This document shows positions 14,140 through 22,811 of a stretch of 64,000 nt of DNA, piece after piece. The position numbers and the translations under genes were made by a program. The stretch lies in contig NZ_KI928919.1 in the NCBI RefSeq assembly GCF_000521215.1, positions 806,104 to 870,103 of the forward strand, in the 5' to 3' direction. Source of the stretch: Labrenzia sp. DG1229 (GTDB taxonomy: Bacteria; Pseudomonadota; Alphaproteobacteria; Rhizobiales; Stappiaceae). The number at the start of each line of letters is the position of its first letter. Position 1 is the first letter of the stretch. Under the pieces are notes generated by a model. That model ran no database searches and had not been told where the DNA came from. It saw nothing but the letters and a program-made list of their open reading frames with translations.

Positions 14140-14216
14140 TCCAGTTTGGAGGAATTGCGCAAAAACTGCACAAGGCCTGACGAACGGCTGCAAGCGGAAC
14201 CGGCACAACAGGTGCC

Positions 14217-15704
14217 ATGACACGTTTCGCGCCATACTCACTCACCACGGCAAGCTTTGTACTTGCCTCACTCGTTCTTGCCTATGAACCCGTTCGCTGG
14301 CTCATCGGGACCTGGCTCGATCCGTCCTACCCCTCATCGGGTGCGCTCTACCTTGTGGTGATTCTGGCGCTTCTTGCCTGGTCGCTCGGCAGTGCAGTCA
14401 CAGGGCCAGAGACCCGGCACCGCCAAACAGCGATCATCCTCCTCCTGGTATCGGGGTTCATCCGTTTTCTCAGCCAGGTACTCGCGATCAATGTTATCGG
14501 CGGGCTTGCGCTTGCCCTCGATGTCTATGCACTTTCCGTCCTGCTCCGCACCGGGAGCCGCGCGCGACCGGTTTCCCCTTTCTGGCTGTCGATCCTGTTC
14601 CTGTTCACGCTTCCGGTGGAACGCATCATCCAGCGTATTGTCGGATATCCGCTGCAGGAAATTTCCGCAAATCTGACCTGCAGGGGCCTGGGGCTCATCT
14701 TCCCGGACGTTCAATGTTCCGGAATCAGGATCGAACTTGCCGGCAAGGATGTCCTCGTGGATCTGCCTTGCTCCGGCACATCCGGCCTGATGCTCGCCAT
14801 GGCGTTCATCGTGGTTTTGAACGCTCTGTTCCGGCCCGGAATTCTGGTTTCCGTTTTCTGGATCGCACTCACGATGTCCCTCAGTCTGCTTGCCAACGCT
14901 CTGCGGATCGGCGCGCTTGCCATCGGACTTTCTCATCCGGAACACGTTTTCGGCCTGAATGTCATGGCCCAGCCACTGCACGATATCATCGGCTATGTTG
15001 CACTTGGTCTGTCGTTGCTTCCCGTCCTTGTCTTTTACAAACCGCGCCGGGTAAACAGGTCCACCGGTTCCACCGGCTGGTTCGCCTGGTCACCGAGCAG
15101 GCCCGTTCAGCACTTGAGCGCGCTTGTCTTTCTTGCCTTGGCGCTGGTGATCGTCACCCTACCGCGAAATGCTCTTGATGTGTCAGCTGCGACACAGCCA
15201 CAGATCCTCCCCCTGTCGCTCAGCGGGGAATTTGGTGTTGATGAGGACCTGCTTCCGGTCGAACAACGCTATTTCAAGCAATACGGAGGGCACGCCCAGA
15301 AACGCCGTTACGGCGCGCTTGTCTTGACCCTCGTACAGACAACATCGCCTTTGCGGCACCTGCACGCTCCGGATGATTGTCTGCGCGGGCTCGGTTACGA
15401 CGTGGAATTCCTGGGAACACGATTCGCTCCGGTTCCGACTGCCCTCTACAGGGCACGCTCCGAAACCGGAGAAGAATGGCGTGTTGCCGTCACCTTCACT
15501 TCCAGCACCGGCGAAACAACCCACAATATCACGGAAGCCATCTGGCTGTGGCTGCAAAACCCAGGAGCCCGATGGACAAGCATCCAGAGAATTACACCCT
15601 GGAACCTTCCGGACAGTCATCTGGAAACCTTTGAAGCCGCAGCCATCGCCGCCCTTGATCTTCGCACAACAATTTCCAGCAAAACCATAAGCCGAGAAGG
15701 ATAG
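14217..15704 (+). CDS. xrtT: Exosortase T-like membrane transpeptidase with EpsI-like C-terminal domain
   Basis: A 495-residue protein. The first 300 residues form about eight membrane helices with the exosortase catalytic set: Cys185 in PCSGTSG, Arg230 in LANALRIG and His255 in PLHDIIGY. Exosortases cleave PEP-CTERM-type sorting signals, in a way analogous to sortases, and process exported proteins. The remaining 180 residues form an extracytoplasmic domain resembling EpsI/DUF3485, with the HAPDDCLRGLGYDVEFLGT segment. The next gene, starting 5 bp downstream, carries a C-terminal PEP-CTERM-like tail, and a two-component system follows. This is the layout of a dedicated one-target system. The XrtT assignment rests on this context and the fusion; the exosortase call itself rests on the catalytic motifs. 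Confidence 0.85.
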   Translation: MTRFAPYSLTTASFVLASLVLAYEPVRWLIGTWLDPSYPSSGALYLVVILALLAWSLGSAVTGPETRHRQTAIILLLVSGFIRFLSQVLAINVIGGLALALDVYALSVLLRTGSRARPVSPFWLSILFLFTLPVERIIQRIVGYPLQEISANLTCRGLGLIFPDVQCSGIRIELAGKDVLVDLPCSGTSGLMLAMAFIVVLNALFRPGILVSVFWIALTMSLSLLANALRIGALAIGLSHPEHVFGLNVMAQPLHDIIGYVALGLSLLPVLVFYKPRRVNRSTGSTGWFAWSPSRPVQHLSALVFLALALVIVTLPRNALDVSAATQPQILPLSLSGEFGVDEDLLPVEQRYFKQYGGHAQKRRYGALVLTLVQTTSPLRHLHAPDDCLRGLGYDVEFLGTRFAPVPTALYRARSETGEEWRVAVTFTSSTGETTHNITEAIWLWLQNPGARWTSIQRITPWNLPDSHLETFEAAAIAALDLRTTISSKTISREG

Positions 15705-15708
15705 TTCC

Positions 15709-17976
15709 ATGACTTTTCTGACGACATTTGCTGCACGGTTCACAACCGTTTTCGTGATCAGCGCCGCATTACCGGCACAGGCAGCCCTGCCCACACCCGA
15801 TGAAATGTCGGGCGTGGTTCTGGCGCAACATGGAGGCAGGGAATTCCAGCTTCCCTTGCTGAAATCAGATTACAAGATCGAAATCGACGGCGACATCGCA
15901 CATGTCGAACTGACGCAGACCTTCCTCAATTCCTCCAGCCACCCCGTCAACGCCACCTACCTGTTCCCGATGAACCAGAAGGCTGCCATTCACGCCATGC
16001 GCGTCGACCTCGACGGCGAGACGCTGATTGCCCGGATCAAGGAAAAAGACAAGGCCGAAGCTGCTTACGAAAAGGCGAAGGCGGAGGGCAAGGGCGCCGC
16101 TCTGCTGACGCAGCACCGGCCGAACATGTTCACTCAGGACGTTGCACACCTTATGCCGGGACGGCCAGTGAAAATCACGATTGAATATGTCCAGAACGTA
16201 TCGAAGGTCGATGGAGCCTACGAGCTGGTTGTTCCGATGGTGGTCGGGCCACGTTATGAGCGGCCGGGCTGGACAAGTCCGGCAAAGCTCGTGAGCTACA
16301 CCAAAGACGGAGAGATGGAGAGCCTGGCATCCGGTGACACATCCGTTGCCGAAGTTGCGCCAAGAACCGACGGCGTGTCCGGCTGGTCCATCGACAAACT
16401 TCCGTCTTATCCGCCTGTCATCGGACAGAACGCGCCGAAGACAATCGACCCGGGTCGCGTTGCACTCGATCTCACGCTCAATTCACCGATCCCGATCTCG
16501 CATCTTGAAAGTGATACGCACGCGGTGACAGTGGTCGGCGACGGATCGCAAAAGTCTGTTCGCTTCACCTCGGGACGAGAGATCGACAACAGGGATTTTG
16601 TCCTGCGGTATGAACTGAACTCGGAGAAGGAGATTGCGTCAGGTCTCACCTCCCACTTCGACGCCGAACAAGGAGGATACCTTTCACTGCTGATTGAACC
16701 TCCGAAAATTCCGCCGGAGGCGATGATCGGGAAACGCGAACTGGTCTTCGTTCTCGACACGTCCGGATCCATGAGAAACCAGCCGATGAATGCGAGCAAG
16801 GCATTCATGACAGCCGCCATCCGGTCTCTCAGGCCTGACGACCACTTCCGTATCATCAGTTTTTCCAGCAGCGCGTCCCATTTTTCGAACAACTCGACCA
16901 AAGCGACCGACAGGAACAAGCGCCTGGCAATCAGCCACGTCTCCAGTCTGCGCGCCGGTGGCGGGACGGAACTCAATCGCGCCCTGAATGCCGCTTTTGA
17001 CACGCGGCAACCTGCCAACACGACGCGCATCGTGGTCTTTCTCACAGATGGCTATATCGGCGATGAAAGGAATGTCATCCGGACAATCTCCGACCGCATC
17101 GGAAACGCCCGTATCTATTCCTTCGGTGTCGGAAATTCGGTCAATCGATTTCTGCTTGACGCGATGGCCCGGGAAGGACGCGGATACGCCCGCTACGTTC
17201 CGGCGGACGGGAATTATCGCGAGATCGCCGCAGACTTTGCAGCAAAACTGAAAACACCGCTTTTGACCGATATCTCTGTAGACTGGAACGGGCTGGTCGT
17301 CTCGGAACCGACGCCGGTAAAAATTCCGGATCTGTTCGAGGGTGGTACCGTTCGGGTTCTGGCCAGATACCCCCAGGGCGGCAAGCACAGGATCTATGTC
17401 AACGGCATCGTCAACGGCCACAAAGCGTCGTTGCCACTCGACGTCGATCTTGATGCGGATGAAAGCTTTGCGACCGCACGCGCGGCACAATCTGAAAAAA
17501 CCGTGCCGCTGATCTGGGCACGGGAACAGATATTCGACAAGAACCGGGCCTACACGATCGGCGGGAGCAGCAACGAAAGTCTCAAAAGGCAGATCACTCA
17601 ACTCGGCCTGACTTATTCCCTGCAATCCCGCTTTACGTCCTTTGTGGCGGTCTCGGAAAAGACGGTCAACAATGTCCCTGCTAGCGCTCAAGGCAGGAGT
17701 GTGCCGTTGCCGCAGGCCTCAGGCGTGCCGAAAAGCGCTTATCCGTCCTTGAACCTCAGCGGCAGTTCCGCGCCTGAACCGGAAGGTATTTTCGGCCTGA
17801 TGCTGGTCGTGCTGGCACTCGCCGCGCGTTTCCGCCGCGCCCTTGCCAAAGCGTTCGGGCGCTCCCTTTCAACCCTGAAACGCAATCATCCAAGGTCCAT
17901 GACCGCTGGCCCGCCTCGGACCGACATAGCCCTTCCCCGAAGCGTGCGCCGGGACGGCTGGTGGCTGGAAACATGA
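15709..17976 (+). CDS. VIT and VWA domain protein, predicted exosortase target with PEP-CTERM-like tail
   Basis: A 755-residue exported protein of the type named marine proteobacterial sortase target protein. After a signal peptide (to about residue 25) comes a VIT domain (about 30-170, with FLNSSSHPVNATYLFPM). A von Willebrand A domain (about 345-510) follows, with an intact MIDAS: DTSGS at 350-354, a threonine in GGGTELN, and D447 in FLTDG. Near the end lies APEPEG, then a hydrophobic stretch and RFRRA, which is the PEP-CTERM pattern of motif, membrane helix and basic cluster. Unusually, about 45 further residues follow the basic cluster. The gene overlaps the response-regulator start by 4 bp (ATGA). 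The role is probably surface adhesion or display, which is inference. Confidence 0.85.
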   Translation: MTFLTTFAARFTTVFVISAALPAQAALPTPDEMSGVVLAQHGGREFQLPLLKSDYKIEIDGDIAHVELTQTFLNSSSHPVNATYLFPMNQKAAIHAMRVDLDGETLIARIKEKDKAEAAYEKAKAEGKGAALLTQHRPNMFTQDVAHLMPGRPVKITIEYVQNVSKVDGAYELVVPMVVGPRYERPGWTSPAKLVSYTKDGEMESLASGDTSVAEVAPRTDGVSGWSIDKLPSYPPVIGQNAPKTIDPGRVALDLTLNSPIPISHLESDTHAVTVVGDGSQKSVRFTSGREIDNRDFVLRYELNSEKEIASGLTSHFDAEQGGYLSLLIEPPKIPPEAMIGKRELVFVLDTSGSMRNQPMNASKAFMTAAIRSLRPDDHFRIISFSSSASHFSNNSTKATDRNKRLAISHVSSLRAGGGTELNRALNAAFDTRQPANTTRIVVFLTDGYIGDERNVIRTISDRIGNARIYSFGVGNSVNRFLLDAMAREGRGYARYVPADGNYREIAADFAAKLKTPLLTDISVDWNGLVVSEPTPVKIPDLFEGGTVRVLARYPQGGKHRIYVNGIVNGHKASLPLDVDLDADESFATARAAQSEKTVPLIWAREQIFDKNRAYTIGGSSNESLKRQITQLGLTYSLQSRFTSFVAVSEKTVNNVPASAQGRSVPLPQASGVPKSAYPSLNLSGSSAPEPEGIFGLMLVVLALAARFRRALAKAFGRSLSTLKRNHPRSMTAGPPRTDIALPRSVRRDGWWLET

Positions 17977-18782
17977 AACTGCCTCGGTTATCTCTTAGTG
18001 AAATGCCGATTCAGACACCTCGAAATCAGCTCCCGCGAAGAAGGCGGGAGCCAATTGCCCGGACCAGCCCATTGCAGACCAAAACCATTCTCGTCGTCGA
18101 CGACGATCCGAACATCCGCGAAGTGATCTGTTTCGCCCTGCAGAAAGCATCCTACATTCACGAGGTTGCCACCAACGGCAAGGACGCGCTGGACAAGGCG
18201 GTGCTCTGCTCTCCCGCACTTGTCATCCTCGATATCGGGCTGCCGGAAATGGATGGCCTTGACGTGTGCCGGGAGCTGCGAAAAAAGTCTGAAGTCCCGA
18301 TCCTGTTCCTGTCCGCGCGGGACGATGAAATCGATCGCATCATCGGTCTGGAACTGGGCGCGGACGACTATGTCACCAAACCCTTCAGTCCACGCGAACT
18401 GATTGCGCGGGTCGGCGTCATTCTCAAGCGCTACGGAGCACCACAGTCCGGGGTAATCCCGGCTGAGGGTTCCAGCCTTGCACATGGTCTGCTGTGCCTG
18501 GAAACAGAAGAGCGTCAGGTCTCGATTGACGGCAACGACGTCACGCTTACTGCCATTGAATTCGATATCCTGACGGCCCTGATGAGCCGTCCCAAGATCG
18601 TCTTTACCCGCGAGCGCATACTTGAACGGGCCTACAAGGACAACATTCACGTCTCCGACCGGACCATTGACAGCCATATCCGCAACATTCGGGCAAAACT
18701 CGGAGCCGCGGGATGCAGCGATGCCATCGAAACCGTCCACGGTGTCGGCTTTCGGCTCGGCCCCTGCGAAAATGGAAGTTGA
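17973..18782 (+). CDS. OmpR-family response regulator of the exosortase cluster
   Basis: A 269-residue response regulator. It has an extra N-terminal segment of about 35 residues, then a receiver domain with the acidic pocket in VVDDDPN, the phospho-acceptor Asp87 (ILDIGLPEMDG) and the lysine in YVTKPFSP. A winged-helix DNA-binding domain follows, with FTRERILERAY and DRTIDSHIRNIRAKL. The ATG at 17973 overlaps the stop codon of the VIT/VWA gene (ATGA); an in-frame GTG at 17961 is an alternative. It matches the group known as proteobacterial dedicated sortase system response regulators, here beside an exosortase instead of a sortase. Confidence 0.85.
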   Translation: MKLPRLSLSEMPIQTPRNQLPRRRREPIARTSPLQTKTILVVDDDPNIREVICFALQKASYIHEVATNGKDALDKAVLCSPALVILDIGLPEMDGLDVCRELRKKSEVPILFLSARDDEIDRIIGLELGADDYVTKPFSPRELIARVGVILKRYGAPQSGVIPAEGSSLAHGLLCLETEERQVSIDGNDVTLTAIEFDILTALMSRPKIVFTRERILERAYKDNIHVSDRTIDSHIRNIRAKLGAAGCSDAIETVHGVGFRLGPCENGS

Positions 18783-18790
18783 GCCTGACG

Positions 18791-20416
18791 ATGCTGTTCT
18801 CGCGATCCTTCCGTGACCGCTGGCGACCGCCTCTCAGCCTGGTCATCGCGCTGGTGCTGGGGATCATGCTGCTTGTCCCGCTTGGCGGGATCGTCTTTTT
18901 CCGCGTCTATGAAAACCAGCTGATACAAACTACGGAAGGCGAACTGATCGCGCAGTCGGCAGCCATCGCAGCCATCACCGCGCAGCACCTGAGGCAATTC
19001 GGTGGTGAAGACCTTCCTCTCGGCACAAATGCCGTCGATCAGCCCATCCCCTATTCCATGGAACCGCTGATCTCCACGCTTCGCAGATCAAAGAGCCAGC
19101 CTGACGGCAACTGGGCCCCGCAACTGCCCATCCTCGATCTGAACAAGACGCCCGTTCTGCCTGCCCGCGCCGACCCGGTGGCCACGGATGTCCGGATTCA
19201 TCCGGCTTATCATGCGACCGGAAAGGCTATCGGCACGGTGCTGAGAGACACCCAGAGACTGACACTTGCCGGTTTCAGAATTCTCGATCCAAACGGGGTC
19301 ATTATCGCGGGCCGGGATGATACGGGCCTGTCTCTTGCACATGTCGAGGAAGTTCAGGCAGCGCTTGGCGGTCGCTATTCGAGCGCTCTGCGCGAGCGTA
19401 CAGTGCAGAACCCTCAACCGATCTATTCCATCAGCCGCGGTACCAGTGTCAGGGTCTTCGCTGCCCTTCCGATCGTCCTCGACGGCAAGGTCGCTGGTGT
19501 CGTCTATGCCTCGCGGACACCAAGCAACATCCTGCGTGAAATGTTCCTGAAGCGGGAAACAATGTTCTGGGTACTCGCCTTCGTGCTCAGCGCCACTTTT
19601 GTCGTCGGCGTCATCTTCGCCCGCGGGATCGCCGGACCGATCAAGGCGCTAACGGAACGTTCGCTGAAAATCGGTCGTGGAGATCGCGATGCGCTCAAGC
19701 CACTCGTCATCCACGGAAACCGGGAAATCCATGCCTTGTCCTCCAGCATGCTGGATACATCGCGCAAGCTGTTCGAGCGAAACGACTATATCAACACTTT
19801 CGCCAATCACGTGACCCACGAACTCAAGACACCGCTGACCGCCATCCAGGGCGCGACCGAACTGCTGCGCGATGGCGGAGATGAACTCAGCGACGCGGAG
19901 CGAGAAAAGTTTCTCGGAAACATCCTGGCCGATACGGAGCGAGCCTCACGATTGTTGAACCGCCTGCGCGAACTCGCCCGGGCCGATAGCGTGGAAATCG
20001 GCGGAAATTGTCAATTGTCGGAGGTGTTGCGTGACATCAGACGACGATTTCAAGGGATCACCATTGATGCAAGTGAAGACTGCATGTTGCCGCTTGCAGC
20101 CGAGAATGCCCGCATTGTCTTCGAAAACCTGATCGACAATTCCATCCGTCACGGAGCAGACCGGGTCTCGTTTTCTCCTGAGGCGACAGAAAACGGATTC
20201 ACTCTTGCCGTTGCCGATAACGGAGAAGGCATATCCGCCGGGAACCAGGACCAGATATTTGACCTGTTTTTCACCACGCGGCGCGCAAGCGGGGGCACCG
20301 GTATGGGCCTCGGGATAATCCAGGCACTGCTCAAGGCCCACCAGGCAACAATCCGGATGAGACCTCAGGATCGCGGCGCCTGCTTTGAAATCTGCTTTCC
20401 GCCCAGGAGAAGTTGA
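18791..20416 (+). CDS. Sensor histidine kinase of the exosortase cluster
   Basis: A 541-residue membrane kinase. Two membrane helices (about residues 15-37 and 255-280) flank a large extracytoplasmic sensor domain with a dCache-like GFRILDPNGVIIAGRDD segment. A HAMP-like linker follows, then the dimerisation domain with phospho-acceptor His343 (THELKTPLTAI) and an ATPase domain with VADNGEGIS and the GGTGMGLGI G2 box. I chose the ATG at 18791, 8 bp after the response-regulator stop. The outward-facing sensor suggests it monitors the envelope, possibly the VIT/VWA target or its ligand. With its partner it forms the two-component system dedicated to the exosortase locus. Confidence 0.85.
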   Translation: MLFSRSFRDRWRPPLSLVIALVLGIMLLVPLGGIVFFRVYENQLIQTTEGELIAQSAAIAAITAQHLRQFGGEDLPLGTNAVDQPIPYSMEPLISTLRRSKSQPDGNWAPQLPILDLNKTPVLPARADPVATDVRIHPAYHATGKAIGTVLRDTQRLTLAGFRILDPNGVIIAGRDDTGLSLAHVEEVQAALGGRYSSALRERTVQNPQPIYSISRGTSVRVFAALPIVLDGKVAGVVYASRTPSNILREMFLKRETMFWVLAFVLSATFVVGVIFARGIAGPIKALTERSLKIGRGDRDALKPLVIHGNREIHALSSSMLDTSRKLFERNDYINTFANHVTHELKTPLTAIQGATELLRDGGDELSDAEREKFLGNILADTERASRLLNRLRELARADSVEIGGNCQLSEVLRDIRRRFQGITIDASEDCMLPLAAENARIVFENLIDNSIRHGADRVSFSPEATENGFTLAVADNGEGISAGNQDQIFDLFFTTRRASGGTGMGLGIIQALLKAHQATIRMRPQDRGACFEICFPPRRS

Positions 20417-20516
20417 ACCTGGATGCTTCTGTTACCTTTATCTTAAGCACGTCTTTTATGCGTTGTTTAACACGCTCTACGTAGTCTCCCCTCAGGAAAC
20501 TTTGGGATTGGACACG

Positions 20517-22811
20517 ATGCAGCAGACGCGACAGCCGTCACTTTCGCCCGGAGAAAGCGGAAGCCTGGGTATTGCGATTCCGGTCCTGCAACTCTTTGCA
20601 GGAACCTTGTTCCTGAGCGCGTTTTTGCTGTTTTCAGTCCAGCCTTTCTTCTCAAAACTGGTTCTGCCGAAACTTGGAGGATCACCCGGCGTGTGGTCCG
20701 TCGCGATGGTTTTCTTCCAGAGCGTTCTGCTGCTGGGATATACCTATGCGCATATTCTGACACGATGCCTGCAAACGAAACGGGCAATACTTGTTCACGC
20801 GGTGGTCCTGTTGTCGGCGTGTGTTTTCCTGCCGTTGGGGATTGCGTCCGGCTGGGATACGCCTCCCGTGCAGCATCAGGAAATCTGGCTTCTTGGATTG
20901 TTTGCAGTCTCGGTCGGCCTACCGTTTTTTGCAGTATCGGCAAACGCCCCGCTGCTTCAGGCCTGGTTTACGCAGACCGGCCACAAACACGCGTCGGACC
21001 CGTACTTTCTCTATGGCGCGAGCAATATCGGCAGTTTCGCATCGCTGTATCTCTACATTCTCGTACTGGAACCAGCTCTTGCGCTTGGAACCCAGTCGCT
21101 GTTGTGGACAGCGGGCTACTTCATGCTGGTCATTGCGATCCTGCTGTGCGGTGCCTCCGTATTCAAGCGGTCGGACACTGTTGCAGAACACACCAATGGG
21201 TCTTCTGAAGCCAGCGATACCAAGACAGCCCGGTGTATCCCGGCAAAACAGATCCTTGTCTATCTTGGCCTCGCCGCCGTACCGTCGGCGCTGACGATCG
21301 CCCTCACCGCGCACATTGCCGTAGACATCGCCTCTGCACCGTTCATGTGGGTCGTTCCCCTTTCGCTCTTCCTGCTGACCTTCGTCATCGCGTTCAAGAG
21401 CAAGCCCCTGATTTCGGTCGACTTCCTGTCGAACCTCCTTCCCTGGACCGCCATCATTGCGGCCGCGGTTATTTTCCTTCCCAAACTTTTGCCGCTGACA
21501 TTCGGGCTCGGCGCCAATCTGCTGATCTATTTCATCACCGTGCTGTTCTGCCATGCGCGGCTTTATCAGCTTCGTCCGCATGCGAGCCAATTGACGGCCT
21601 TTTATCTCTGGATGTCGGTCGGCGGTGTCCTTGGCGGTATCTTTGCCGGTCTGATCGCGCCGAACATCTTCAATTGGGTTGCCGAATACCCGATGCTGAT
21701 GCTGAGCGCACTGTTCCTGCTACCACTCAAAGGCGGCGCCACCTCCAGATCCGTCTTCTGGACTATCGCCGTTGGCTTCGTTCTCGCATTTGCATTCTGG
21801 GTGGCCGCAACGCGTGGCCTGATCCCCGAATCTAAGGGACACGAGGTCGTCACGTTGTCGATCATCGGCCTGATTACGCTTGCAGCCATTGTGCAGCTCA
21901 AGTGGCAGGCCGTGTCCCATATCCTGCTGGTTCTGACCGTTCCATTTGCCCTGCTCTTGCAACTTCACCCGAGCGTCGTTCACTCGGAACGGTCATTTTT
22001 CGGTGTCATAAAAGTCAAGGACACCGACAACGGTTTGCATCGCAGGATGGTGCATGGCACGACAGTTCACGGCAGCATCTCCATGAACGCCTTCGAACCG
22101 GACGTTGGAACAGGCAATCCGGAACCGCTTGCCTACTATCATGAGACAGGTGAGATGGCCGACACGTTGAACGCCGCAAGAGTCGCAGCCGGTGGCACGT
22201 TGCGGCATGCCGGCATCGTCGGTCTTGGAACGGGGAGCTTTCTGTGCCACATGCAACCCGGTGAAGAATGGGCCGTCTACGAAATCGACAAGTCGGTCAT
22301 AGATGTTGCGTCGAACCCGGCCTACTTCCGCTTCATTTCAGACTGCGGCCCGCAGGCGAAAATGGTTCTTGGTGATGCGCGGCTGACACTAGAGGCAGAG
22401 CCGGACAGCAAATTCGACTATCTGCTCATCGATGCGTTCTCATCCGATTCCATACCGGTTCATCTGATGACGAGAGAGGCAATCGACCTCTTTTTTTCAA
22501 AACTCTCGAAGAACGGGTTGCTGGCGCTCCACATATCGAACCGGTATCTTGAACTGGCCAGCGTGCTGGCCGCCATCGCTGAAGTGGATGGATATGAACT
22601 GCGTTTTGCGAAGTTCAGCGCAGCTGAGGACAGGACCAAGCCCGATCAGGTTTTCGGAGCAAATGTCATTGTGCTTGCACGCGAAGAAGCCGATTTCGGC
22701 CCACTTCTGGAAAACCCAAGGTGGAACACCGTTTCGGCAGGAGACACGCGGCCCTGGACGGACGATTATTCGAACATTGTCGGCGCAATTGTCCGGCATG
22801 AGTTCAGGTAA
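20517..22811 (+). CDS. Fused MFS-like membrane protein with spermidine-synthase domain
   Basis: A 764-residue fusion. Residues 20-510 contain many hydrophobic helices of the MFS-like type seen in this family, starting with LFAGTLFLSAFLLFSVQPFF and SVAMVFFQSVLLLGYTYAH. The C-terminal 220 residues form a Rossmann methyltransferase-like spermidine-synthase domain with GIVGLGTGSFLCH, VYEIDKSVIDVA and DYLLIDAFSSDSIPVHLMT. Despite its name, no polyamine product has been shown for this fusion family. The ATG at 20517 fits the family start; the open frame extends upstream into the kinase gene without a family match. It follows the histidine kinase by 100 bp, so it may or may not be co-transcribed with the exosortase genes. 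Confidence 0.85.
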   Translation: MQQTRQPSLSPGESGSLGIAIPVLQLFAGTLFLSAFLLFSVQPFFSKLVLPKLGGSPGVWSVAMVFFQSVLLLGYTYAHILTRCLQTKRAILVHAVVLLSACVFLPLGIASGWDTPPVQHQEIWLLGLFAVSVGLPFFAVSANAPLLQAWFTQTGHKHASDPYFLYGASNIGSFASLYLYILVLEPALALGTQSLLWTAGYFMLVIAILLCGASVFKRSDTVAEHTNGSSEASDTKTARCIPAKQILVYLGLAAVPSALTIALTAHIAVDIASAPFMWVVPLSLFLLTFVIAFKSKPLISVDFLSNLLPWTAIIAAAVIFLPKLLPLTFGLGANLLIYFITVLFCHARLYQLRPHASQLTAFYLWMSVGGVLGGIFAGLIAPNIFNWVAEYPMLMLSALFLLPLKGGATSRSVFWTIAVGFVLAFAFWVAATRGLIPESKGHEVVTLSIIGLITLAAIVQLKWQAVSHILLVLTVPFALLLQLHPSVVHSERSFFGVIKVKDTDNGLHRRMVHGTTVHGSISMNAFEPDVGTGNPEPLAYYHETGEMADTLNAARVAAGGTLRHAGIVGLGTGSFLCHMQPGEEWAVYEIDKSVIDVASNPAYFRFISDCGPQAKMVLGDARLTLEAEPDSKFDYLLIDAFSSDSIPVHLMTREAIDLFFSKLSKNGLLALHISNRYLELASVLAAIAEVDGYELRFAKFSAAEDRTKPDQVFGANVIVLAREEADFGPLLENPRWNTVSAGDTRPWTDDYSNIVGAIVRHEFR

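What the first reader, a model, noticed from the sequence alone, without database searches (positions are those of the whole stretch)
14217..20416. Self-contained exosortase system: enzyme, one target and dedicated two-component system
Exosortase T-like protein, VIT/VWA target with PEP-CTERM-like tail, response regulator and histidine kinase are consecutive and tightly spaced (5 bp, a 4-bp overlap, 8 bp). The target and the kinase/regulator pair resemble those found with a sortase in other marine proteobacteria, but here the processing enzyme is an exosortase fused to an EpsI-like domain. Two unrelated transpeptidase types thus seem to serve the same kind of target. The purpose, possibly regulated display of an adhesin, is not known.
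Basis: partly seen in the sequence, partly recalled or inferred. Interest (0 to 1): 0.8.

Follow-up and report, generated by a model that had tools for sequence, protein, structure and literature searches.

The report
Self-regulated exosortase and its single target
A marine bacterium carries a compact gene set that makes a membrane cutting enzyme, the one surface protein it probably cuts, and its own sensor and switch; similar sets, mostly with the same kind of DNA switch site in front, recur in distant bacteria.

Summary
The four genes are real. The enzyme is a clear exosortase T (XrtT, 705 bits, cut-off 250), a family NCBI already names. In 80 named relatives a VIT/VWA gene follows XrtT directly in 77, and a matching regulator/kinase pair lies in the held flank in 56.

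Targets are homologous, but XrtT, sortase-type and GlyGly targets form separate groups, and LPXTG, GlyGly and PEP tails on this family were published in 2011 (PMC3237569). The kinase/regulator pair is not the sortase one.

Not seen in print in my searches: (1) a tandem CTGCACA-N4-CTGCACA box upstream of XrtT, 12/14 or better in 48 of 81 loci, all in XrtT's orientation, phased at 11/22/33 bp, with one exact copy per genome in 17 of 17 genomes chosen for having it; (2) a motif, LPxSLRxDGWWLE, on the target's end, XrtT, a DUF4153 protein or a small ORF; (3) this genome also has a GlyGly-tailed VIT/VWA gene overlapping a rhombosortase gene. Processing and regulation are inferred, not shown.

The parts
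14155..14194 (+). Tandem box upstream of XrtT: four half-sites TTGCGCA, CTGCACA, CTGACGA, CTGCAAG starting at 14155, 14166, 14177, 14188 (11-bp phase)
   Evidence: read; scan score 12/14 at -62, p 0.015; TGCGCAAAAACTGCACA is the only exact match of its pattern in the own genome, one more with 1 mismatch and four with 2
14217..15704 (+). Exosortase T (XrtT) with C-terminal EpsI-like region (about residues 296-495)
   Evidence: NF033770 705 bits over cut-off 250; PF09721 77 bits; Cys185, Arg230, His255 invariant in 52; EpsI-like by hhalign, weak
15709..17976 (+). VIT/VWA surface protein, presumed XrtT target
   Evidence: PF08487 103 bits, PF13768 77 bits, PF00092 66 bits; TIGR03788 424 bits, under its cut-off 552
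17773..17844 (+). PEP-CTERM-like tail: PEP (residues 689-691) then hydrophobic stretch to about residue 712
   Evidence: PEP in 70 of 72 complete relatives; hydropathy
17932..17970 (+). LPRSVRRDGWWLE motif at the extreme C-terminus, after the basic cluster
   Evidence: similar motif in XrtT, a DUF4153 protein or a small ORF of other genomes
17973..18782 (+). OmpR-family response regulator (start uncertain: ATG 17973 or TTG 18072)
   Evidence: PF00072, PF00486; best NCBIfam CreB 233 bits, under its cut-off 273; tree; N-termini
18791..20416 (+). Sensor histidine kinase with extracytoplasmic sensor (about residues 38-255)
   Evidence: PF00512, PF02518; model mean pLDDT 87; kinase core matches solved kinases

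Best explanation
This is a dedicated, self-regulated exosortase module. Shown from sequence: XrtT, its VIT/VWA partner and, in most loci, a regulator/kinase pair of a lineage of their own travel together, and a tandem direct-repeat box lies in front of the XrtT operon in most of them. Inferred: the kinase senses something outside the inner membrane through its extracytoplasmic domain and phosphorylates the regulator; the regulator binds the phased CTGCACA repeats and switches on the operon; the target is exported by its signal peptide and held by its C-terminal helix; XrtT (Cys185, Arg230, His255) cuts near the PEP motif and transfers the protein to an unknown acceptor for release to, or display on, the surface, where the VWA domain could bind a ligand. 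The cut leaves a helix with a cytoplasmic tail ending in LPRSVRRDGWWLE; the wandering of that motif among system proteins suggests that it is a docking site for a shared partner.
For: XrtT 705 bits with an invariant triad. Target directly downstream in 77 of 80 loci; of the other three, L095 and L105 have it 1.4 kb and 5.5 kb downstream and L111's contig ends. Pair in the held flank in 56 of 80: 38 downstream, 6 upstream, 12 divergent. Box score 12/14 or more in 48 of 81 XrtT upstream regions against 10 of 520 other ORFs, 7 of those 10 being the same site seen from a divergent neighbour. 31 of 62 loci not used to form the consensus also reach 12, and 60 of 62 best hits are on XrtT's strand. 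Loci by spacing (7-33 bp tried): 11 bp 48, 22 bp 27, 33 bp 21, 28 bp 14, every other 5 or fewer. The box goes with the regulator: score 11 or more in 51 of 57 loci with it and 10 of 24 without. In Pseudovibrio, whose XrtT locus lacks the pair, a 14/14 box precedes a DUF4153-regulator-kinase operon on another contig. Upstream of the target in sortase loci 0 of 20 reach 12, one of them without usable sequence.
Against: No processing, binding or expression was measured. 24 of 81 loci have no such regulator in the held flank and 10 of these still score 11 or more; many of the 24 are cut short by contig ends, but Hyphomicrobium (L087) and Thiotrichales (L104) have room and neither box nor regulator. 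The box is not universal: Stappia sediminis (L037), a near relative with the pair, scores 10 (p 0.308), Pseudovibrio L045 11 (p 0.085), and Competibacteraceae often 10. The window's own p is 0.015. The consensus was formed by eye from 19 loci, so per-locus p values there are circular. A spacing of 28 bp (14 loci) is not explained by helical phasing. The target carries 45 residues after the basic cluster, unusual for a PEP-CTERM tail.
Confidence: 0.7

Rival explanations
1. It is the marine proteobacterial sortase cassette in which only the enzyme and tail were exchanged, so the kinase/regulator pair is orthologous to the sortase pair.
For: Targets are homologous over most of their length (424 bits to TIGR03788); both systems can sit near an OmpR-type regulator and kinase; 7 of the 20 sortase loci fetched have both near the target.
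Against: The 8 sortase regulators form their own clade (100*) apart from 57 XrtT regulators. The 7 sortase kinases score 95-140 against the XrtT kinase profile, six E. coli paralogues 132-189, 27 members 535-691. Upstream of the target in sortase loci 0 of 20 carry the box.
Confidence: 0.1
2. XrtT is not specific: other proteins are its substrates too, or the genome's second exosortase (XrtD) processes the VIT/VWA protein.
For: The genome has a second exosortase, an XrtD of 567 bits. A genome-wide list of PEP-CTERM proteins could not be made.
Against: XrtT and this target are adjacent in distant phyla. XrtD is expected to read VPLPA-type signals (NCBI's model name).
Confidence: 0.2
3. The CTGCACA box is read by an unrelated regulator or is a promoter element, and the adjacent pair controls other genes.
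For: 10 of 24 loci without the pair in the flank score 11 or more. What an OmpR-family regulator binds cannot be read from its sequence here.
Against: Direct repeats at 11 bp are a known form for this family: the CreB tag TTCACnnnnnnTTCAC (passages of PMC3660660) has the same period. Box and regulator co-occur, Fisher p 1.6e-5 without correction for kinship. The one exact copy per genome is at XrtT in 17 of 17 genomes chosen for having it there. A box also precedes the regulator operon in Pseudovibrio.
Confidence: 0.15

Closest known systems
Exosortase T (NCBIfam NF033770), exosortase/PEP-CTERM systems (Haft 2006, PMC1569441, passages read)
   Same: 705 bits, full length; Cys/Arg/His motifs; PEP tail on a secreted partner
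   Different: the PEP-CTERM/EpsH systems described there are correlated with exopolysaccharide genes and, in some genomes, a sigma-54 site with PrsK/PrsR; here an adjacent target, an OmpR-type pair and a CTGCACA box. What NCBI's own notes say of XrtT was not available to me
Marine proteobacterial dedicated sortase system (TIGR03784, 03785, 03787, 03788)
   Same: VIT/VWA target with a C-terminal sorting tail, kinase and regulator nearby in some genomes
   Different: unrelated enzyme; target, regulator and kinase all under the models' cut-offs; separate groups; no sortase in this genome
GlyGly-CTERM/rhombosortase (PMC3237569, section 12 and passages; PMC6219818, abstract only)
   Same: same target family; this genome has such a pair too (L114; TIGR03902 121 bits)
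   Different: rhomboid serine protease; GlyGly tail; target in a separate group, two sequences only
XrtN system VIT domain protein (TIGR04477)
   Same: by NCBI's model names, an exosortase with a VIT-domain partner
   Different: the window's target has no TIGR04477 hit at E 0.001
CreBC
   Same: best NCBIfam match of regulator and kinase; 11-bp direct-repeat site
   Different: under the equivalog cut-offs (233 of 273; 143 of 356); different repeat; E. coli CreB did not group with XrtT regulators in a quick tree with long branches, and PhoB, BaeR, CpxR and OmpR score higher than CreB against the XrtT regulator profile

Membership tests
Exosortase T (NF033770) | model score over curated cut-off | tested here: met
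   705.1 bits, cut-off 250
Exosortase T (NF033770) | invariant Cys, Arg, His motifs of exosortases | tested here: met
   C185, N227xxR230, H255xxxG259 invariant in 52 sequences; motifs as stated in PMC1569441
Exosortase T (NF033770) | at least eight membrane helices | tested here: inconclusive
   hydropathy scan only, merged peaks; the structure job was never accepted
Exosortase T (NF033770) | proteolysis/transpeptidation of the target | not testable with these tools
   needs protein work
EpsI domain (TIGR02914, PF11984) | model match | tested here: not met
   no hit listed at E 10 for the C-terminal 199 residues, while the own XrtD scores 138 and 183 bits
EpsI domain (TIGR02914, PF11984) | profile similarity and HxPxxC motif | tested here: inconclusive
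   hhalign probability 73, E 3.1e-5, against the 8 of 24 other exosortases in which the HxPxxC pattern was found
PEP-CTERM tail | PEP motif, hydrophobic helix, basic cluster | tested here: met
   PEP in 70 of 72 complete relatives
PEP-CTERM tail | located at the extreme C-terminus | tested here: not met
   64 residues follow PEP in the window's protein, 61-72 in the other motif-bearing targets, 21-51 in 60 targets outside the clade
PEP-CTERM tail | TIGR02595 match | tested here: inconclusive
   nothing rang in the genome or any control
Marine sortase target (TIGR03788) | score over cut-off | tested here: not met
   423.6 of 551.65
Marine sortase system regulator/kinase (TIGR03787, 03785) | score over cut-off | tested here: not met
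   148.6 of 335.7; 71 of 612.2
Marine sortase system | sortase TIGR03784 in the genome | tested here: not met
   0 matches in the own genome
CreBC | equivalog cut-offs | tested here: not met
   CreB 232.7 of 273; CreC 143.2 of 356
CreBC | creD neighbour | not tested
   no CreD search was made
Dedicated (one enzyme, one target) system | target adjacent and alone in the genome | tested here: inconclusive
   adjacent in 77 of 80; the rest of the genome could not be screened for PEP tails

The most novel reading that the evidence does not exclude
LPxSLRxDGWWLE is a transferable cytoplasmic docking tag of a previously undescribed five-part XrtT module. It sits alternatively on the substrate's tail, in the enzyme's linker, on a DUF4153 membrane protein or on a small separate protein, and recruits a common partner. 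In the Stappiaceae-type version the tag stays on the membrane stub left after cleavage and could report processing to the kinase or other machinery, closing a feedback loop on the CTGCACA-controlled operon.
Probability: 0.25. Interest if true: 0.8.

Novelty: new variant of a known kind. Interest (0 to 1): 0.6.

Why it matters
What exosortases attach their substrates to, and how such systems are regulated, is largely open (my judgement; the passages seen give little). A 2024 study found that deleting xrtF and its neighbour in Flavobacterium johnsoniae affects surface colonisation, and called itself the first empirical evidence of such a role (PMC10936215, passages). A module with one enzyme, one adjacent substrate, its own sensor and a defined promoter box is a small, testable unit: the box gives a reporter for the signal, and single-gene deletions give a readout of processing. 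Three groups of one target family, each tied to its own unrelated enzyme, two of them in this genome, would allow three sorting chemistries to be compared on related cargo.

Tried and rejected
Sortase-type two-component pair: rejected. Gene after the kinase: the fused MFS/spermidine-synthase gene at 20385-22811 has relatives only in L033 and L034 among the 80 loci, so it is not part of the module. Clustering of ORFs in the 80 loci (groups in 6 or more loci listed) gave mostly shadow ORFs and scattered transporter genes; DUF4153 was the only added family at a fixed place, in 7 of 80 loci, with short fragments also in L050, L052 and L053. The own genome has no DUF4153 match. A box-like site of the own genome with one mismatch (C25:446806) lies inside a LysR-type gene and was set aside; four sites with two mismatches were not looked at. 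Motif in the own genome: two DNA matches, the target's tail and an 81-codon open frame opposite an ABC ATPase gene, taken as chance. A longer motif pattern hit 3 of 385 alphaproteobacterial genomes: one XrtT, one 64-codon open frame without known role, one protein that looks like a YdcF type (name recalled); that pattern does not match the window's own tail, which has V for L. The kinase sensor has no significant match in solved structures by sequence (two at E 0.7 and 0.96), only sub-threshold GAF/Cache hits, and the fold comparison was filled by the kinase core, so its fold is open. PADLOC gave one weak hit, SduA to the regulator (26 bits), none to the other three. Literature listings: 'XrtT' 9, unrelated by title; 'exosortase T' 2; exosortase with VIT, sortase and histidine kinase 2; TIGR03788 none; DUF4153 2; others. 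I saw no report of this box or motif in these listings and in the passages read; that is not a full reading, and subscription papers, including Haft 2012, were not held. Not done: an XrtT model, a model of the kinase sensor alone, and a whole-genome search for the regulator in genomes whose XrtT locus lacks it.
Full report
What is there. Four same-strand genes lie at 14217-20416. The first is exosortase T: NF033770, 705 bits against a cut-off of 250. The Cys, Arg and His motifs given for exosortases (PMC1569441, passages) are Cys185, Arg230 and His255 and are invariant in 52 aligned sequences, the window's and 51 chosen from the 80 loci. The second is a VIT/VWA protein with a PEP motif, a hydrophobic stretch and a basic cluster. 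The third and fourth are an OmpR-type regulator and a histidine kinase. Gaps are 4 bp, a 4-bp overlap if the regulator starts at 17973, and 8 bp; relatives suggest a later regulator start at TTG 18072.

The C-terminal part of XrtT. It was called EpsI-like. Neither EpsI model hits it, whereas the genome's other exosortase, an XrtD, carries a clear EpsI domain. A profile comparison with the 8 of 24 other exosortases that show the HxPxxC pattern gives probability 73, E 3e-5. I call it EpsI-like with reserve.

Conservation. A scan with an alignment of four XrtT proteins returned 80 named loci, the best 80 of 95, from Alpha- and Gammaproteobacteria, Nitrospinota, a bin labelled Chloroflexota and one unclassified bin. 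The closest is Roseibium album (98%). The target follows directly in 77 of 80; L095 and L105 have it further downstream and L111's contig ends. The regulator/kinase pair is in the held flank in 56 of 80: 38 downstream, 6 upstream on the same strand, 12 divergent, some of these several kb away. In 24 it is not in the flank, often because the contig ends. XrtT over cut-off is rare: 4 of 385 sampled genomes of the class, the own genome included.

Relation to sortase and rhombosortase systems. The target scores 424 bits to the marine sortase target model, under its cut-off; the three other XrtT targets in the class sample score 457-463, also under it. In a tree of 84 target cores, 37 XrtT (picked from 80 loci and the window), 45 sortase-type and 2 GlyGly proteins are each one group (99*, 99*, 100*; quick method). 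Of the 45, 19 come from loci fetched around a sortase; 26 were taken by TIGR03788 score alone and their neighbours were not checked. Five rows (L158, L185, L190, L192, L209; near-copies or incomplete) were dropped before the tree. That one VIT/VWA family carries LPXTG, GlyGly-CTERM and PEP-CTERM tails was reported in 2011 (PMC3237569, section 12 read, with Verrucomicrobium as the PEP case). The same genome also holds a VIT/VWA protein with a GlyGly tail whose gene overlaps a rhombosortase gene by 4 bp (L114), and Litoreibacter roseus (L074) holds a PEP and a GlyGly type on one contig.

The two-component pair. Best NCBIfam models are CreB (233 bits) and CreC (143), both under cut-off; the sortase-system models give 149 and 71. 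In the regulator tree (78 of 88 rows kept; short matches dropped) the 57 XrtT regulators lie apart from the 8 sortase regulators (100*), though they need two changes on the tree, not one, and several long branches make the placement of the E. coli rows unsure; against the XrtT regulator profile E. coli PhoB, BaeR, CpxR and OmpR score higher than CreB, so the CreB link is no more than a best model name. In the kinase-core tree 27 XrtT kinases are one group with modest support (72/75), 7 sortase kinases another (100/100). So each system has its own pair.

The promoter box. Aligning upstream DNA of 6 Roseibium/Stappia loci (window included) and 13 Rhodobacteraceae loci showed CTGCACA repeats. Scanned at an 11-bp period, 48 of 81 XrtT upstream regions (window included) score 12/14 or more, against 10 of 520 other ORFs in the same loci; of these ten, seven are the same site seen from a divergent neighbour, one lies upstream of what is probably the true start of the regulator in L076 (inference), and two are one site in L112. 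All 45 hits with p under 0.01 are on XrtT's strand. By spacing, loci with a pair: 48 at 11 bp, 27 at 22, 21 at 33, 14 at 28, 5 or fewer at the others from 7 to 33, almost none on the other strand. Of 62 loci not used to form the consensus, 31 reach 12 and 60 have their best hit on XrtT's strand. Score 11 or more: 51 of 57 with the regulator in the flank, 10 of 24 without; Fisher p 1.6e-5, uncorrected for kinship. Against it: L037, a near relative with the pair, scores 10, and many Competibacteraceae 10. In 17 genomes chosen for a perfect box at XrtT, that is the only perfect copy, 17 of 17 (positions checked by hand); by a rough estimate about half a chance copy would be expected in all of them together, so this shows no second perfect site rather than depletion. 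Upstream of the target in sortase loci 0 of 20 reach 12, one having no usable sequence; other promoters of those loci were not scanned. In the window four half-sites run in phase at 14155-14194.

A fifth, optional part. A DUF4153 membrane protein follows the target in 7 of 80 loci (three of the seven were run against Pfam). In Pseudovibrio ascidiaceicola, whose XrtT locus lacks the pair, another contig has a 14/14 box, then DUF4153, then an XrtT-type regulator (316 bits) and kinase (600 bits). In the Afifella bin a 13/14 box precedes a small ORF and a DUF4153 gene that overlap by 4 bp. The DUF4153 gene of Stappia sediminis had no box of 12 or more in the stretch fetched. Of 30 XrtT genomes searched, 8 have DUF4153 over cut-off; the own genome has none.

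The wandering motif. The last residues of the window's target, LPRSVRRDGWWLE, recur with small changes at the end of 9 related targets (L033-L037, L040, L041, L045, L048); L039 of the same clade lacks it and L038, L042 and L111 are incomplete. A like motif lies in the linker between the two halves of XrtT in 6 loci (L043, L044, L046, L066, L068, L073), at the start of the DUF4153 protein in L079 and in the small ORF of Afifella. Among 8344 ORFs a pattern drawn from them hits 17, all XrtT-system proteins (the pattern was made from these, so only its specificity counts). In the stretches held no locus has it on two of these proteins. In targets that bear it 61-72 residues follow PEP, against 21-51 in 60 targets outside the clade. 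The positions, after the basic cluster of the target and in the linker of XrtT, suggest the cytoplasmic side; that is inference.

Mechanism, shown and inferred. Shown: gene content, conservation, box, motif. Inferred: export, cleavage by XrtT at PEP, surface display, sensing by the kinase, binding of the box by the regulator, docking by the motif. The kinase model (mean pLDDT 87) has a sensor of helices and strands between two hydrophobic stretches; its fold was not identified. The VWA domain has DTSGSM, the start of a metal-binding motif (recalled), which fits ligand binding; D[TV]SGSM is found in 54 of 76 targets, so it is not universal in that form.

Verdict. The enzyme family and the idea of several enzymes for one target family are known. 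Not seen in print in the searches listed in Tried and rejected are the system-specific box, the distinct two-component lineage, the DUF4153 link and the motif.

Noticed in passing
own genome C7:143799-145583 (L114): Second VIT/VWA protein with a GlyGly tail, its gene overlapping a rhombosortase gene (TIGR03902, 121 bits).
   Followed up: partly
own genome C21:64704-65465 (L001): A second exosortase, XrtD (VPLPA-CTERM type, 567 bits) with a clear EpsI domain; next to it open frames that look like a glycosyltransferase and a nucleotide-sugar dehydrogenase (by eye).
   Followed up: no
window 20385-22811: Fused MFS/spermidine-synthase-type gene right after the kinase; of the 80 loci only L033 and L034 have a relative.
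   Followed up: partly
L074 19216-21399: Litoreibacter roseus carries a GlyGly-tailed VIT/VWA gene about 3.5 kb beyond the kinase gene of its XrtT cassette.
   Followed up: no
L057 13687-14268: An M23-type peptidase gene (86 bits) sits between target and regulator in Methyloglobulus.
   Followed up: no
L043 13807-14241, L044 9370-9810, L046 13870-14322: A 144-150 aa, hydrophobic-looking protein between target and regulator in three alphaproteobacterial bins; the L043 copy has no Pfam match over cut-off.
   Followed up: no
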